From the NCBI RefSeq assembly GCF_003350475.1, contig NZ_QQAV01000001.1, positions 364,836-428,835 of the forward strand: DNA of 64,000 nucleotides, in the 5' to 3' direction. Both the position numbers and the translations under genes were made by a program. Below, piece by piece: positions 3,364 through 20,251 of this stretch. The number at the start of each line of letters is the position of its first letter. Position 1 is the first letter of the stretch. Source of the DNA: Pseudacidovorax intermedius. Its GTDB lineage: Bacteria > Pseudomonadota > Gammaproteobacteria > Burkholderiales > Burkholderiaceae_C. The notes beneath the pieces were generated by a model. It did not search any database and was not told where the DNA came from. It saw nothing but the letters and a program-made list of their open reading frames with translations.

Positions 3364-3454
3364 GGCAGCCGCGATTCTGCCGTTCCCCACGCACCACGCC
3401 CCGGCATGCGGCGCACCACCTTGCCGCGCACTCGCCCATCGCTGCGAACCGTTT

Positions 3455-3470
3455 TGGACCATTTGGTCAA
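3455..3470. promoter_or_regulatory. RutR-like operator upstream of rutA
   Basis: TGGACCATTTGGTCAA matches the E. coli RutR consensus TTGACCAnnTGGTCAA at all but one of its 14 fixed positions. It lies 105 bases before the rutA start codon and 54 bases before the -24 element. A rutR homologue is at 7339-8088 and a second similar site is at 8295-8310. Confidence 0.75.
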
Positions 3471-3524
3471 AACACGCAAGGCAAATTTCCATCAAGCCAT
3501 TGATCTAGAACAGGAAACTGGCAT

Positions 3525-3540
3525 TGGCACAGCGCGTGCA
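3525..3540 (+). promoter_or_regulatory. Sigma-54 promoter of the rut operon
   Basis: TGGCACAGCGCGTGCA agrees with TGGCACGNNNNTTGCA except at two positions. It has the invariant GG (3526-3527) and GC (3538-3539) with exactly 10 bases between. The predicted start is near 3551, giving a ~25-base leader with a CTGGAG ribosome site at 3561 before the rutA ATG. The E. coli rut operon is likewise NtrC/sigma-54 dependent. Confidence 0.75.
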
Positions 3541-3575
3541 AACCCGCCGGCAATCCCATCCTGGAGTCCACCCAC

Positions 3576-16369: not shown

Positions 16370-17416
16370 ATGACCTTTCCGATCAACCGCCGCGACCTGC
16401 TGGCCCGCAGCCTGGGCACCGCCGCCGCACTCGGCCTGCCCGCCTTCCCCTCCCTCGCGGCTGCGCCGCTGGTGATCAACACCTACGGTGGCCGCTGGGA
16501 AAAGTTCTGGCGCACCGACCTGATGCCGGCCTTCGAGAAGATCAGCGGCGTCAAGCCCACGCTGGACGTGGGCCTGGGCAAGAACTTCATCGCCAACCTG
16601 CGCGCCGCCGGCATCGAGAAGCCGCCCTACAGCGTTCTGATGGTCAACGAGAACATCGCCAGCGTGGTGCGCGGCGAGGGCTACTTCGAGCCCATCCCCG
16701 CCGCCAAGGTGCCCAACCTGGCCCATGTCTACCCCAACATGCGCAACCCGGGCGACAACGGCGTGCGCGGCATCGTCTCGACCATCGGCATCGGCTACCG
16801 CAAGGACCTGGTCAAGACGCCGCCCAAGTCCTGGGCCGATCTCTGGAGCAACCCCGAGTTCAAGGGCAAGATCGGCCTCTACCAGATCGGCAACACGGCG
16901 GCCATGCTGTTCCTCTTGATGACCGCCAAGATCTACGGCGGCTCGCAGGACGCCATCGACCGCGCCTTCGTCGAGATCAAGAAGCTGCTGCCCTTCCAGC
17001 AGGCCGACTGGAGCGGCACGCTGTCGACCATGCTCACGCGCGGCGACGTCACCGTGGCGGTGATCGACTTCCCCGAGATCGTGGCGCTCAAGAAGAAGGG
17101 CGTGCCGGTCGAGATGGTGGTGCCCAGCGAAGGCGTGGTGGCCTTCGAGCAGTCCTTCAACATCCTCAAGCACGCGCCCGACAAGGAAGCCGCCTACCAG
17201 TACCTCAACTTCATCCTGCGGCCCGAGGTGCAGGAGTCGATGGCCAAGGAGTTCTTCACCTCGCCCACCAACACGCAGGTGAAGCTGGAGCCGGCGCTGG
17301 CCGCCGACGTGCCGATCAGCGGCAAGGCCATGTCCTCCATCGTGCAGTTCGACTGGGCGAAGGTGAATCCGCAGCTGCCGGCGATCACGGATCGCTGGAA
17401 CCGGGAAATCAAGTGA
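16370..17416 (+). CDS. PotD-like ABC substrate-binding protein with twin-arginine signal
   Basis: 348 residues. The N-terminus carries NRRDLLARS followed by an Ala/Leu-rich core and ends near SLAAA, which looks like a Tat signal. The mature part resembles spermidine/putrescine-type binding proteins (LVINTYGGRWEKFWR; KTPPKSWADLWSNPEFKGKIG). It begins 40 bases after the second dioxygenase and precedes potABC-like genes on the same strand. The ligand is not known; polyamines are only one option. Confidence 0.88.
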   Translation: MTFPINRRDLLARSLGTAAALGLPAFPSLAAAPLVINTYGGRWEKFWRTDLMPAFEKISGVKPTLDVGLGKNFIANLRAAGIEKPPYSVLMVNENIASVVRGEGYFEPIPAAKVPNLAHVYPNMRNPGDNGVRGIVSTIGIGYRKDLVKTPPKSWADLWSNPEFKGKIGLYQIGNTAAMLFLLMTAKIYGGSQDAIDRAFVEIKKLLPFQQADWSGTLSTMLTRGDVTVAVIDFPEIVALKKKGVPVEMVVPSEGVVAFEQSFNILKHAPDKEAAYQYLNFILRPEVQESMAKEFFTSPTNTQVKLEPALAADVPISGKAMSSIVQFDWAKVNPQLPAITDRWNREIK

Positions 17417-18540
17417 GCGCAGTCCTGTCCGCGCCGCCCGAGGCCGCGATGCCCACGGTCCGCACGGCCGGCCGGCGCACCACGCGGCTGTCCATCGAGG
17501 GGCTGCACAAGCGCTATGCCGGCCATGTGGCCATCCATTCGCTGGACCTGTCCACCCGCGAGGGTGAGTTCATCTCCGTGCTGGGCCCGAGCGGCTGCGG
17601 CAAGACCACCACGCTGCGCTGCGTGGCCGGCTTCGAGCATCCGGCGGCCGGCCGCATCTTCATCGACGGCGAGGACATCACCGGCCTGCCGCCCGAGAAG
17701 CGCGACATCGGCATGGTGTTCCAGAACTACGCGCTCTTTCCGCACCTCACGGTACGGCGCAACCTGGCCTTCGGCCTGGAGATGCGCGGCGTGCCGCGCG
17801 CCGAGATCGAACGCCGGGTCGAAGCCGTGCTGGGCATGGTGCAGCTGGGCGCACTGGCCGAACGCTATCCGCGCCAGCTCTCCGGCGGGCAGCAGCAGCG
17901 CGTGGCGCTGGCACGGGCGCTGGTGATCGAGCCGCGCCTGCTGCTGCTGGACGAACCGCTGGCCAACCTGGACGCGGTGCTGCGCGAGGACATGCGGGTG
18001 TTCATCCGCGACCTGCAGCGGCGCGTGGGCATCACCACGCTCTATGTGACGCACGACCAGGCCGAGGCGATGGTCATGTCCGACCGCGTGGCCGTCATGC
18101 TGGGCGGCCAACTGCAGCAGTTCGACGTGCCCGAGGCCATCTACCTGCGGCCCCTCAGCGTGGAAGTGGCCCGTTTCATCGGCCGCTCCAACCTCATCGA
18201 AGGCCGCGTGCGCGCCATCGTCCCCGGACCTGGGCCGCGGCCGGTGCATGCGGTCGACACCGCACTGGGCCCCGTCGAAGCCGCCTTCCATGAGGCCCTG
18301 GAGCCCGGCCAGGCCGTGCAGGTGACGCTGAGGCCCGAGGCCATCCACTTCCGCGCCGACGGCCCCTATGCGGGCCGTGTGGCACGCAGCTACTTCCTGG
18401 GCAGCACGGTCGAGCATGTGGTGGAGGCCGCCGGCGGCCAGACCCTGCTGGTGCAGACGCCGCCCGGCGGACGCATGCCCGAAGGCGCGCACTGCGGCCT
18501 GGCCTTCGAGCCCGGGCATGCCTGGGTCATTCCGGGATGA
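17413..18540 (+). CDS. PotA-like ABC transporter ATP-binding protein
   Basis: 375 residues from a GTG at 17413 that overlaps the upstream TGA (GTGA). It has Walker [10 protein letters not shown], the signature [15 protein letters not shown], Walker [13 protein letters not shown] and a C-terminal TOBE domain of ~110 residues. This is the layout of spermidine/putrescine and related importers. Overlaps of 4 bases at both ends indicate a tight operon. Confidence 0.93.
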
Positions 18541-19442
18541 GCGCGTCCACGCTGGCCGCGCCTGCTGCGGCCCCCCTCACGACGGCGACGACGCCGCCGC
18601 GCAGCCGCGCCATCTGGCTCATCGCCCCGGCGCTGGTGCTGCTGGGCGTGTTCCTGCTGCTGCCCTACCTGAACATCGTGCTGATGAGCCTGCGCCCGCC
18701 GGCCGTCGGCGCACCCTACGGCGCCGGGCTGACGCTGGGCAACTACACCCGCGCGCTGACCGACGGCTACCTGCTCGGTGTGCTGGCCGACACGCTGCTG
18801 CTGGGCCTGACGGTGACGCCGATCTGCCTGCTACTGGGCTATCCCGTCGCCTTCCACCTCGCGCGTACGCGTTCGCGCTGGGCCGGCCTGCTGTACGTGC
18901 TGGTGCTCTCGCCGCTACTGGTGGGCGTGGTGGTGCGCAGCTTCGGATGGCTGATCCTGCTGTCGGGCAACGGCGTGATCAACCGCGCGCTGATCGACCT
19001 GGGCTGGATCGACAGCGGCCTGCAACTGATGAACAACCGCCTGGGCGTGACCATCGCGCTGGTGCATGTGTTCCTGCCCTTCATGATCCTGCCGCTGGTG
19101 GGCGTGATCCAGAGCATCGACCCGAGCCTGGAGGCCGCGGCGCGCTCGCTGGGCGCCTCGCGGCTCAAGGCCTTCCTGCGGGTGTCGCTGCCGCTGTCGT
19201 GGCCCGGCATCCAGGCTGGCACGGTGCTGGTGTTCGTGCTCACGCTCAGCGCCTATGTCACGCCGGTGATGCTGGGCGGGGCGCAGGTCAAGACGGTGTC
19301 GGTGCTGGTGGTACAGAGCCTGATCGACAACTTCCAGTGGCCGGCGGGCGCCGCTCAGGCGCTGGTGCTCACGGCCTGCGGCATGCTCGCCGTGGCCGCC
19401 TACGCGCGGCTGACGCGCCGCCTTTCGAGGGGTCTGGCATGA
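18537..19442 (+). CDS. PotB-like ABC transporter permease
   Basis: 301 residues with six predicted membrane segments. The coupling-helix motif EAAARSLGASRLKAFLRVSLPLS is typical of binding-protein-dependent permeases of the PotB type. It is coupled by 4-base overlaps to the ATPase gene and to the second permease. Confidence 0.92.
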   Translation: MSASTLAAPAAAPLTTATTPPRSRAIWLIAPALVLLGVFLLLPYLNIVLMSLRPPAVGAPYGAGLTLGNYTRALTDGYLLGVLADTLLLGLTVTPICLLLGYPVAFHLARTRSRWAGLLYVLVLSPLLVGVVVRSFGWLILLSGNGVINRALIDLGWIDSGLQLMNNRLGVTIALVHVFLPFMILPLVGVIQSIDPSLEAAARSLGASRLKAFLRVSLPLSWPGIQAGTVLVFVLTLSAYVTPVMLGGAQVKTVSVLVVQSLIDNFQWPAGAAQALVLTACGMLAVAAYARLTRRLSRGLA

Positions 19443-20251
19443 ACGGATCGATGGTGGCCGACCGCGCGATGGACACGCTGCTGCGCGTCTTCATCGGCGC
19501 GGTGTATGCCTTCCTGCTGCTGCCGATCGTGGTGATCGTGCTCATGTCGCTCAACGCGGGCGAGTTCCTCACCTTTCCGCCGCAGGGACTGTCGCTGCGC
19601 TGGTTCGGCGCGTTGTTCGCCAACGAGGGCTTCATGCGGGCCATGGGCACTTCACTCGCCCTGGCGGCGGCTGCCACGGTGGGGGCCACGCTGATCGGCA
19701 CCAGCGCGGCGCTGTACGTGGTGCGCCATGCCACGCGCACGCGCGAGGCGCTGCGCCTGCTGCTCATGATGCCGCTGATGCTGCCGGAGATCCTCACCGC
19801 GATCGCGCTGCTGTTCTTCCTGTACGCGACGGGCATCGGCACGCGCACGGTGTTCGGGCTGGTGGTGGGCCATGTGCTGGTGACGCTGCCCTACGTCTTC
19901 ACCAACGTGGCCTCGGCGCTCTACAACCAGGACGGCTCGCTGGAGCAGGCAGCGCGCAGCCTGGGCGCCTCGCCCGCGCGGGCCTTCGCGCGCGTGACGC
20001 TGCCGCTCATCAAGCCGGGCCTGATCACCGGCGCGCTGTTCGCCTTCGTGATCTCCTTCGATCTGTTCAACATGTCGCTGCTGCTCAAGGGCGTGGGCAT
20101 GACCACGCTGCCGCTGCAGCTCTTCGACTACCTGCGCTGGGACTTCGACCCGACGGCCGCAGCGGTGTCCACGGTGAGCATCGTGCTGACGCTGGCGGCG
20201 GTGGTGTGGATCGACCGCAGCGTGGGTCTGCGCACGCTGCGCTTCGGCTGA
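19439..20251 (+). CDS. PotC-like ABC transporter permease
   Basis: 270 residues with six predicted membrane segments and the coupling motif EQAARSLGASPARAFARVTLPLIKP written over residues ~170-195. It is the last gene of the run that starts at 8371. It ends 27 bases from the convergent SDR-like gene. Confidence 0.92.
   Translation: MNGSMVADRAMDTLLRVFIGAVYAFLLLPIVVIVLMSLNAGEFLTFPPQGLSLRWFGALFANEGFMRAMGTSLALAAAATVGATLIGTSAALYVVRHATRTREALRLLLMMPLMLPEILTAIALLFFLYATGIGTRTVFGLVVGHVLVTLPYVFTNVASALYNQDGSLEQAARSLGASPARAFARVTLPLIKPGLITGALFAFVISFDLFNMSLLLKGVGMTTLPLQLFDYLRWDFDPTAAAVSTVSIVLTLAAVVWIDRSVGLRTLRFG

What the first reader, a model, noticed from the sequence alone, without database searches (positions are those of the whole stretch)
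3364..20251. Two divergently placed operons form one candidate RutR/sigma-54 pyrimidine regulon
The Rut operon (3576-7326) and a 12-gene operon (8371-20251) each begin with a strong -24/-12 promoter and a RutR-like palindrome sharing the core CCATTTGGTC, with rutR between them. The second operon encodes two Fe(II) dioxygenases, a VOC protein, two ABC importers and a RutB-like hydrolase. Coupled overlaps run through most of it. This suggests an undescribed route that feeds imported pyrimidine compounds into nitrogen scavenging. Function of the second operon is inference; shared signals are seen in the sequence.
Basis: partly seen in the sequence, partly recalled or inferred. Interest (0 to 1): 0.85.

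Follow-up and report, generated by a model that had tools for sequence, protein, structure and literature searches.

The report
RutR-linked pyrimidine import-and-oxidation operon
Next to the known genes for getting nitrogen from uracil, many soil and water bacteria carry a second, apparently co-controlled operon that seems to import a uracil-like compound and oxidise it, pointing to an unrecognised feeder route into pyrimidine breakdown.

Summary
rutABCDF (3576-7326) and a 12-gene operon (8371-20251) lie on the same strand (not divergent), with rutR on the other strand between them. Each has a -24/-12 element and a RutR-type palindrome; no other palindrome in 64 kb reaches 12/14 (0.03 expected).

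Comparison splits the second operon. Its core, ox1-voc-bmp-nupOPQ (dioxygenase, VOC protein, BMP importer), keeps its order in 69 of 72 named loci, from Burkholderiales to Pseudomonas and Marinobacter; 77 of 80 have a palindrome plus -24/-12 at fixed spacing (3 of 1600 shuffles). Of 399 family genomes, 19 carry ox1 (60% identity or more); all 19 are among the 21 with RutA. Three RutA-less ox1 genomes all carry PreA instead. The last five genes are a local add-on.

By fold, ox1's closest solved relative is fungal thymine-7-hydroxylase, but uracil-contacting residues differ. The importer keeps AtzT's aromatic clamp, not its purine contacts. The hydrolase is not RutB.

Best reading: a RutR/sigma-54 regulon feeding an imported, oxidised pyrimidine-type compound into ring breakdown. 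The regulon is well supported; the substrate and the VOC role are open.

The parts
3455..3470 (.). RutR-type operator upstream of rutA, TGGACCATTTGGTCAA
   Evidence: 13/14 to the recalled E. coli RutR consensus; 67-70 bp (start to start) upstream of the -24 element in the window and 11 of 12 relatives scanned (45 in L073)
3525..3540 (+). sigma-54 type -24/-12 element of rutA, TGGCACAGCGCGTGCA
   Evidence: 10/12; 10-11/12 in 12 of 12 relatives scanned
3576..4697 (+). rutA
   Evidence: TIGR03612 700 bits
4712..5503 (+). rutB
   Evidence: TIGR03614 397 bits, above cut-off
5535..5927 (+). rutC
   Evidence: TIGR03610 254 bits
5936..6724 (+). rutD
   Evidence: TIGR03611 351 bits
6748..7326 (+). rutF (start chosen by eye, approximate)
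   Evidence: TIGR03615 263 bits
7339..8088 (-). rutR, TetR-family pyrimidine sensor
   Evidence: PRK15008 290 bits; in the alignment to E. coli RutR 6z1b (positions counted by hand) the residues named by PMC10891134 for uracil (W77, Y97, W167, Q171, Q179) and DNA (K52, K62) are conserved
8295..8310 (.). RutR-type operator of the second operon, TTGTCCATTTGGTCCA, 2 bp upstream of the -24 element
   Evidence: 12/14; a 12/14 box 18 bp (15 loci) or 20 bp (2 loci) before the -24 element, start to start, in 17 of 17 loci with ox1 of 77% or more
8313..8328 (+). sigma-54 type -24/-12 element, TGGCACGGTCGTTGCA
   Evidence: 12/12
8371..9363 (+). ox1: Fe(II)/2OG dioxygenase, thymine-7-hydroxylase-like
   Evidence: PF14226+PF03171; ranks 1-11 of the PDB fold search are all Neurospora T7H
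9363..9749 (+). voc: VOC-fold protein of unknown activity
   Evidence: PF00903; close solved relative 2rbb, 235 bits
9852..10949 (+). bmp: substrate-binding protein of a BMP/PnrA-type importer
   Evidence: PF02608; best PDB match AtzT 6pi5, 223 bits
11068..12573 (+). nupO: double ATPase of the importer
   Evidence: PF00005, two stretches
12566..13696 (+). nupP: permease
   Evidence: PF02653
13698..14642 (+). nupQ: permease
   Evidence: PF02653
14642..15349 (+). hyd: isochorismatase-fold cysteine hydrolase, not RutB
   Evidence: PF00857; below RutB and biuret hydrolase cut-offs; D, K and C of the family seen by eye in the alignment
15346..16329 (+). ox2: second, distant Fe(II)/2OG dioxygenase (lineage-specific)
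   Evidence: PF14226+PF03171; 32% to ox1; follows hyd in the window's order in 14 of 69 named loci long enough
16370..17416 (+). sbp6: substrate-binding protein of a second (spermidine/2-aminoethylphosphonate-type) importer (lineage-specific)
   Evidence: PF13343/PF13416; no NCBIfam cut-off met
17413..20251 (+). potA-potB-potC: ATPase 17413-18540 and permeases 18537-19442, 19439-20251 of the second importer (lineage-specific)
   Evidence: PF00005+PF08402; PotB/PotC-type permeases below cut-offs

Best explanation
A two-operon RutR/sigma-54 regulon. When nitrogen is short and a pyrimidine base is present, RutR leaves its operators and the sigma-54 promoters fire. The first operon makes the Rut ring-opening enzymes. 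The core of the second, ox1-voc-bmp-nupOPQ, imports an aromatic pyrimidine-type compound through an AtzT-like BMP importer. Ox1, an enzyme that works like thymine-7-hydroxylase, oxidises it with VOC as its constant partner, and the product is a uracil- or thymine-type base for Rut (or, in RutA-less genomes, for the reductive PreA pathway). At ox1 the RutR operator lies 2 bp from the -24 element, so RutR should block sigma-54 polymerase directly; at rutA it lies about 70 bp upstream and must act otherwise. hyd probably cleaves a carbamoyl/ureide-type side product. Shown: genes, boxes, geometry, conserved order, co-occurrence. Inferred: RutR binding, induction, importer ligand, ox1 substrate, VOC and hyd roles. 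ox2-sbp6-potABC is a lineage-specific addition of unknown substrate.
For: Boxes: the only two palindromes of 12/14 or better in 64 kb. Box and -24/-12 at fixed spacing in 17 of 17 close loci and 77 of 80 named loci, against 3 of 1600 shuffles. In L066 the module is on another contig from rutA and keeps the box; in L073 ox1 and voc were separated and each has a box upstream. Twelve genomes were searched for RutR: the 10 with a hit of 285 bits or more all have a CCA-type box at ox1 (12/14 in four, 11/14 in one, 9/14 in five), the two without (G695, G700) do not (but see against). In gammaproteobacteria a GCAC-N7-GTGC (NtrC-type) core stands upstream of ox1 in 17 of 26 loci and of rutA in 14 of 15 scanned (2.7% and 1.6% of shuffles). 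RutR's uracil residues are conserved. Co-occurrence: all 19 genomes with ox1 of 60% or more have RutA, RutA is in 21 of 399; 10 of 11 RutA genera among 141. Three RutA-less ox1 genomes all have PreA (base rate 107 of 399). Ox1 fold: ranks 1-11 all T7H. bmp: AtzT's ring-clamping aromatics are kept as W52/W200.
Against: No expression, binding or enzyme data. In ox1 the T7H uracil contacts N87, E122 and N294 are V, S and Q, and Y324/R328 are H/K; the conserved R190, Y217 and F292 also occur in ox2 and most other homologues, so they do not identify the substrate. By plain sequence a reconstructed ancestral ethylene-forming enzyme scores slightly above T7H (171.6 vs 163.7 bits). The T7H grouping in the tree is moderate (84/76) on a long branch. 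AtzT itself prefers guanine (0.11 uM) to thymine (620 uM) or uracil (1600 uM). No isoorotate decarboxylase-like gene is in the operon. The window's own NtrC site is at chance level. L155, without a true RutR, still has a palindrome at the operator place that scores 9/14, as much as five accepted boxes, though with a CCG core. Three of the 22 ox1-search genomes (G403, G421, G367; 47-57% identity), which I left out of the 19, have no RutA. In G699 and G702 RutA is in two pieces, and G699 has no PreA. The own genome has other NCS2 base permeases (5 matches).
Confidence: 0.62

Rival explanations
1. Bacterial thymine demethylation: ox1 oxidises thymine (or another 5-substituted uracil) stepwise to 5-carboxyuracil, which loses CO2 (perhaps by VOC) to give uracil for Rut, avoiding the methyl-branched Rut products of thymine.
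For: T7H is the closest solved relative by fold and the best natural protein in the sequence search; RutR senses uracil/thymine (title of a reference); voc directly follows ox1 in 78 of 78 named loci long enough.
Against: N87, E122, N294, Y324 and R328 of T7H are replaced; no known decarboxylase nearby; in L073 ox1 and voc are apart; VOC proteins have no such known activity (recalled).
Confidence: 0.25
2. Oxidative nucleoside cleavage: the BMP importer brings in pyrimidine (deoxy)nucleosides and ox1 hydroxylates the sugar (as the Rhodotorula 1'- or 2'-hydroxylases do; recalled), releasing uracil or thymine.
For: BMP/PnrA importers often carry nucleosides (recalled; 'nucleoside-binding protein' is a common label of AtzT relatives). 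It would explain why the module goes with either Rut or PreA.
Against: No sugar- or lactone-processing gene in the conserved core and no metabolic gene in common among the neighbours examined in L187, L155, L154, L174, L177 and L186 (an SMP-30/gluconolactonase-like gene does lie near the module in L155); the nearest relative AtzT binds free bases.
Confidence: 0.2
3. Dealkylation of an N- or O-alkyl pyrimidine or related N-heterocycle of plant or soil origin, with hyd cleaving a ureide product.
For: Two polar T7H contacts are V and S in ox1; hyd scores best with biuret hydrolase (70.8 bits, cut-off 370); a 57% ox1 relative sits near an allantoinase-like gene (L074); other cysteine hydrolases sit beside the module in L155 and L186.
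Against: hyd is not in that place in 22 of 71 long-enough loci, so it is not needed everywhere.
Confidence: 0.2
4. The module scavenges an unrelated nitrogen heterocycle (purine, triazine) and shares only nitrogen control; the palindromes are incidental.
For: Closest importer AtzT is a purine/triazine binder; three of 80 loci miss the box at the tested spacing.
Against: Box conservation, the RutA/PreA co-occurrence, and loss of AtzT's purine contacts S97, E165, N218, N220, although H and D at the last two are shared with the adenine-bound 3s99.
Confidence: 0.08

Closest known systems
E. coli rutA-G / RutR system (Rut pyrimidine pathway)
   Same: RutA, B, C, D, F and RutR; RutR box; nitrogen control (in E. 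coli NtrC-dependent, PMC10891134 passages)
   Different: No rutE or rutG in the operon; a second RutR-box operon with dioxygenase, VOC and ABC importer; boxes at two different, each conserved, distances from a sigma-54 promoter
RutR regulons of Proteobacteria (RegPrecise; PMC5343134)
   Same: Predicted RutR regulons in 68 genomes, 13 groups, 10.9 genes on average (passages), so expansion beyond rut is already known in kind
   Different: Gene lists sit in a supplement not readable here; whether this module is listed is unknown to me
Fungal thymine-7-hydroxylase (PDB 5c3o-5c3s; PMC4787775)
   Same: Fold (TM 0.84), Fe and 2OG ligands, Phe/Tyr base clamp, Arg190
   Different: N87, E122, N294, Y324, R328 replaced; bacterial, in an import operon, with a VOC partner
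AtzT, purine/hydroxyatrazine-binding protein (PDB 6pi5; PMC6834077)
   Same: BMP family, aromatic ring clamp, phenylalanine at the F98 position
   Different: S97, E165, N218, N220 are A, V, H, D; H and D at the last two are shared with 3s99
Reductive pyrimidine pathway (PreA/PydA)
   Same: Alternative fate of uracil/thymine; found in the three RutA-less genomes with the module that were tested
   Different: Not found in any of the 21 RutA genomes of the family sample

Membership tests
Rut pathway operon | RutA, RutB, RutC, RutD, RutF above curated cut-offs | tested here: met
Rut pathway operon | RutE and RutG in the operon | tested here: not met
   The five genes fill 3576-7326; NCS2 permeases lie elsewhere in the genome; rutE elsewhere not searched
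RutR | TetR-type RutR with uracil-contacting residues | tested here: met
   PRK15008 cut-off met, TIGR03613 not; W77, Y97, W167, Q171, Q179 conserved
RutR regulon (second operon) | RutR palindrome conserved at the promoter | tested here: met
RutR regulon (second operon) | RutR binds and pyrimidine relieves | not testable with these tools
   needs EMSA/footprint
NtrC/sigma-54 regulon | -24/-12 element | tested here: met
   12/12 at 8313, 10/12 at 3525
NtrC/sigma-54 regulon | NtrC site upstream | tested here: inconclusive
   Window best core 7/8 upstream of ox1 and 6/8 upstream of rutA, at shuffle level; 8/8 in 17 of 26 (ox1) and 14 of 15 (rutA) gammaproteobacterial loci scanned
Thymine-7-hydroxylase | Fe and 2OG ligands (H214, D216, H271, R286, S288, Y194) | tested here: met
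Thymine-7-hydroxylase | Uracil contacts N87, E122, N294 and helix residues Y324, R328 | tested here: not met
   V, S, Q, H, K in the window's ox1; T7H mutants N87A and E122A are not severely impaired on thymine itself and N294A is unaffected (passages)
Thymine-7-hydroxylase | Oxidises thymine | not testable with these tools
   needs enzyme assay
Purine-binding BMP protein (AtzT) | Aromatic clamp Y45/W194 | tested here: met
   W52/W200, invariant in the 22 aligned sequences
Purine-binding BMP protein (AtzT) | S97, E165, N218, N220 | tested here: not met
   A103, V171, H224, D226 (positions counted by hand)
RutB | TIGR03614 cut-off 378 bits | tested here: not met
   hyd 41.5 bits; 31% over 90 aa

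The most novel reading that the evidence does not exclude
Bacteria possess an oxidative thymine-to-uracil (or modified-pyrimidine-to-uracil) salvage branch, which I know only from fungi, in which a T7H-like dioxygenase works with a VOC-fold protein of new activity (for example 5-carboxyuracil decarboxylation). RutR couples it to Rut, and in RutA-less genomes it serves the reductive pathway.
Probability: 0.25. Interest if true: 0.82.

Novelty: new variant of a known kind. Interest (0 to 1): 0.62.

Why it matters
It assigns a conserved six-gene block, found in Variovorax, Pseudomonas, Stutzerimonas and Marinobacter among others, to pyrimidine nitrogen scavenging and makes its substrate directly testable. 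It would extend thymine-hydroxylase-type chemistry to bacteria, give a role to a solved VOC structure (2rbb), and show one repressor controlling two sigma-54 promoters through two different fixed geometries.

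Tried and rejected
Tried and rejected. (1) Treating all 12 genes as one pathway: rejected, ox2 follows hyd in only 14 of 69 long-enough loci. (2) hyd as a second RutB: rejected. (3) BMP as the AtzT-type purine binder: contacts not kept. (4) BMP/Nup as the putative B6 importer of NCBIfam: far below cut-offs. (5) A third RutR target in the genome: the third exact palindrome is inside a cysM-like gene. (6) A clear NtrC site in the window: my first scan used a wrong spacer; the corrected one is at chance for the window. 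(7) My first -24/-12 scan had an index error, corrected. (8) Neighbours of six loci (L187, L155, L154, L174, L177, L186; 20 proteins) for a shared extra enzyme: none in common. (9) AlphaFold of VOC: weak (pLDDT 72), not used. (10) 'Box simply lost' in L155: corrected, a diverged palindrome CTGTCCGACCGGTCAG stands at the same place, 13/16 identical (counted by hand) to CTGTCCAACTGGACAG between the PreA cluster and a RutR-like regulator of that genome. One case only; a core of the same 8/8 quality also turns up at an unrelated place in L231. My first scan of that region used an impossible threshold and showed nothing. (11) Paper searches that gave nothing on the module.

Recalled, not from a call: the letters of the RutR consensus, the sigma-54 and NtrC consensus, the label PA4191 for 6jyv, fungal isoorotate decarboxylase, the Rhodotorula nucleoside hydroxylases, the methyl-branched Rut products of thymine.

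Full report
OBSERVATION. The window holds rutABCDF at 3576-7326, rutR on the minus strand at 7339-8088, and a 12-gene plus-strand operon at 8371-20251. RutA-D and RutF pass NCBIfam cut-offs; RutR passes one of two RutR models. The title's 'divergently placed' is wrong: both operons are on the plus strand. Against the recalled consensus TTGACCAnnTGGTCAA, two palindromes reach 12/14 or better in 64 kb, at 3455 and 8295; 0.03 are expected. The -24/-12 element at 8313 is perfect; the one at 3525 is 10/12, which alone is common by chance (about 16 per 64 kb). In the whole genome the strict operator pattern has three exact hits, these two and one inside a cysM-like gene; with one mismatch it has 20, against 27 for the control.

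CONSERVATION OF THE PROMOTERS. A search of 399 genomes of the family with ox1 gave 22 genomes at E 1e-80, and 20 regions were fetched, leaving out the own genome and G367. In 17 of 17 with ox1 of 77% or more, the operator is 12/14 and starts 18 bp (15 loci) or 20 bp (2 loci) before the -24 element, so it ends 2 or 4 bp from it. At rutA the operator (11-13/14) lies 67-70 bp upstream of the -24 element in 11 of 12 relatives scanned and 45 bp in L073. Of the other fetched loci, L074 (ox1 relative of 55-57%) has no box, and L075 (44-46%) was below the identity limit of the scan. In 77 of 80 a palindrome of 9/14 or better stands 16-21 or 64-72 bp before a -24/-12 of 9/12 or better; 3 of 1600 shuffled upstream regions pass. 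I chose the two distance ranges after seeing the data. The three misses: L153 has a 13/14 box at another distance, L191 an 8/14 one near the usual place, and L163 none. One of the 77, L155, passes only with a diverged palindrome. In Stutzerimonas, Halopseudomonas and Marinobacter, ox1 has the rutA-type spacing of 68-69 bp. A GCAC-N7-GTGC core, the recalled NtrC half-sites, is found upstream of ox1 in 17 of 26 gammaproteobacterial loci and of rutA in 14 of 15 scanned (2.7% and 1.6% in shuffles). In the window the best such site is at shuffle level, so NtrC control there is inferred from sigma-54 only.

INDEPENDENT REARRANGEMENTS. In L073 ox1 has moved beside rutA, and both ox1 and voc have boxes upstream; in L066 the module lies on another contig from rutA and keeps the box. 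Twelve genomes were searched for RutR. Ten have a hit of 285 bits or more, and all 10 have a CCA-type box at ox1: 12/14 in four, 11/14 in one, 9/14 in five. G695 and G700 have only weak RutR-like hits (177 and 149 bits), within about 3.3 kb of PreA. L163 (G700) has no palindrome. L155 (G695) has CTGTCCGACCGGTCAG at the operator place; it too scores 9/14, so by score alone it is not worse than five accepted boxes, and the tracking of box by RutR rests on the CCA core and on L163. In G695 CTGTCCAACTGGACAG lies between the PreA gene cluster and the RutR-like regulator, hinting that the module joined the other pyrimidine regulon; this is a single case.

WHAT THE SECOND OPERON IS. The order ox1-voc-bmp-nupO-nupP-nupQ is found in 69 of 72 named loci long enough to show it; voc follows ox1 in 78 of 78; hyd follows nupQ in 49 of 71; ox2 follows hyd in 14 of 69; rutA or rutR lies within the locus in 68 of 80. 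So the unit is a six-gene core, an optional hydrolase, and a lineage-specific ox2-sbp6-potABC.

LINK TO PYRIMIDINE CATABOLISM. In the 399-genome sample RutA is in 21 and ox1 of 60% or more in 19, all with RutA; the two RutA genomes without ox1 are G320 and G675. The three further genomes, at 47-57% identity (G403, G421, G367), have no RutA and were not counted as ox1. At genus level ox1 is in 10 of the 11 RutA genera among 141. PreA is in 107 of 399 and in none of the 21 RutA genomes. Of the 80 named loci, 17 show no rutA within the locus; I tested 12 of these 17, and L185. Of these 13 genomes 8 have RutA in one piece, two (G699, G702) in two pieces in different frames, and three (G695, G700, G701) none. 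PreA, tested in six genomes, is in exactly those three and not in G690, G699 and G703. The module therefore goes with pyrimidine ring breakdown as such, not with Rut alone. This is correlation, with phylogenetic dependence, and the base rate of PreA is 27%.

PROTEINS. Ox1: the AlphaFold model (pLDDT 80) matches Neurospora thymine-7-hydroxylase in ranks 1-11 (E 8.6e-30, TM 0.84, 31% identity), then an ancestral ethylene-forming enzyme. By sequence the reconstructed ancestral enzyme 9ovh scores 171.6 bits and T7H 163.7. T7H groups with ox1 and its nearest paralogues at 84/76 support on a long branch. Fe and 2OG ligands, R190, Y217 and F292 are kept, but the last three also in ox2; N87, E122, N294, Y324 and R328 are V, S, Q, H and K. 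So ox1 works like, but is not filed as, a T7H. BMP: AtzT is the best PDB match; its Tyr45/Trp194 clamp is W52/W200, while S97, E165, N218 and N220 are A, V, H and D, the last two shared with the adenine-bound 3s99, so a flat ring is likely, and guanine in AtzT's manner is not. VOC has a close solved relative, 2rbb, without known function as far as I know. hyd is a cysteine hydrolase with weak likeness to biuret hydrolase and RutB. RutR keeps the residues that the E. coli structure paper names for uracil and DNA.

MECHANISM. RutR plus sigma-54 gives AND logic: pyrimidine present and nitrogen short. At ox1 the operator ends 2 bp from the -24 element, so steric block of sigma-54 polymerase is likely; at rutA the distance suggests interference with activator contact instead. 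Import by BMP-NupOPQ and oxidation by ox1 with VOC would give a base for Rut or PreA. Substrate candidates are in the rivals. The regulon I hold at about 0.9, pyrimidine-type substrate at about 0.65, thymine itself at about 0.25.

LITERATURE. Four papers were seen as passages only: PMC5343134, PMC4787775, PMC6834077, PMC10891134. No paper describing the module appeared in the listings (each listing shows at most the best 25 papers). RegPrecise may already list it under RutR; its gene table was out of reach.

Noticed in passing
window 46884 (minus strand): A second perfect 12/12 -24/-12 element, TGGCACGACGGTTGCT, between a minus-strand regulator-like ORF (46011-47009) and a plus-strand amidase-like ORF (47033-48448); both labels by eye.
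   Followed up: partly
window 10950-11067 and 21820-21837: The bmp-nupO gap holds a repeat-like stretch (TGCGCTCCGCCAACCCCC) with a second copy (2 mismatches) at 21820; 0.37 expected, 7 of 100 shuffles had two or more.
   Followed up: partly
399-genome family sample: RutA and PreA do not co-occur: 0 of 21 RutA genomes has PreA although 107 of 399 do, so oxidative and reductive pyrimidine routes look mutually exclusive in this family.
   Followed up: yes
L070 10565-11506: An ox2 relative (65%) sits between two bmp copies in another genus.
   Followed up: no
L074 1005-5835: A 57% relative of ox1 lies with a GntR regulator, an SDR, a Peripla_BP_6 binding protein and a PuuE-allantoinase-like gene (99 bits, cut-off 425).
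   Followed up: partly
L203, L204 (G699); L202, L205 (G702): RutA matches in two overlapping pieces in different frames in Pseudomonas oryzihabitans KNF2016 and Alkalilimnicola ehrlichii AK92, both with the ox1 module and a box; sequencing error not excluded.
   Followed up: no
L155 17521-18177 and L186 8373-9017: Two cysteine hydrolases, 68% alike and only 31-33% like hyd, sit beside the module in Paraburkholderia and Stutzerimonas.
   Followed up: partly
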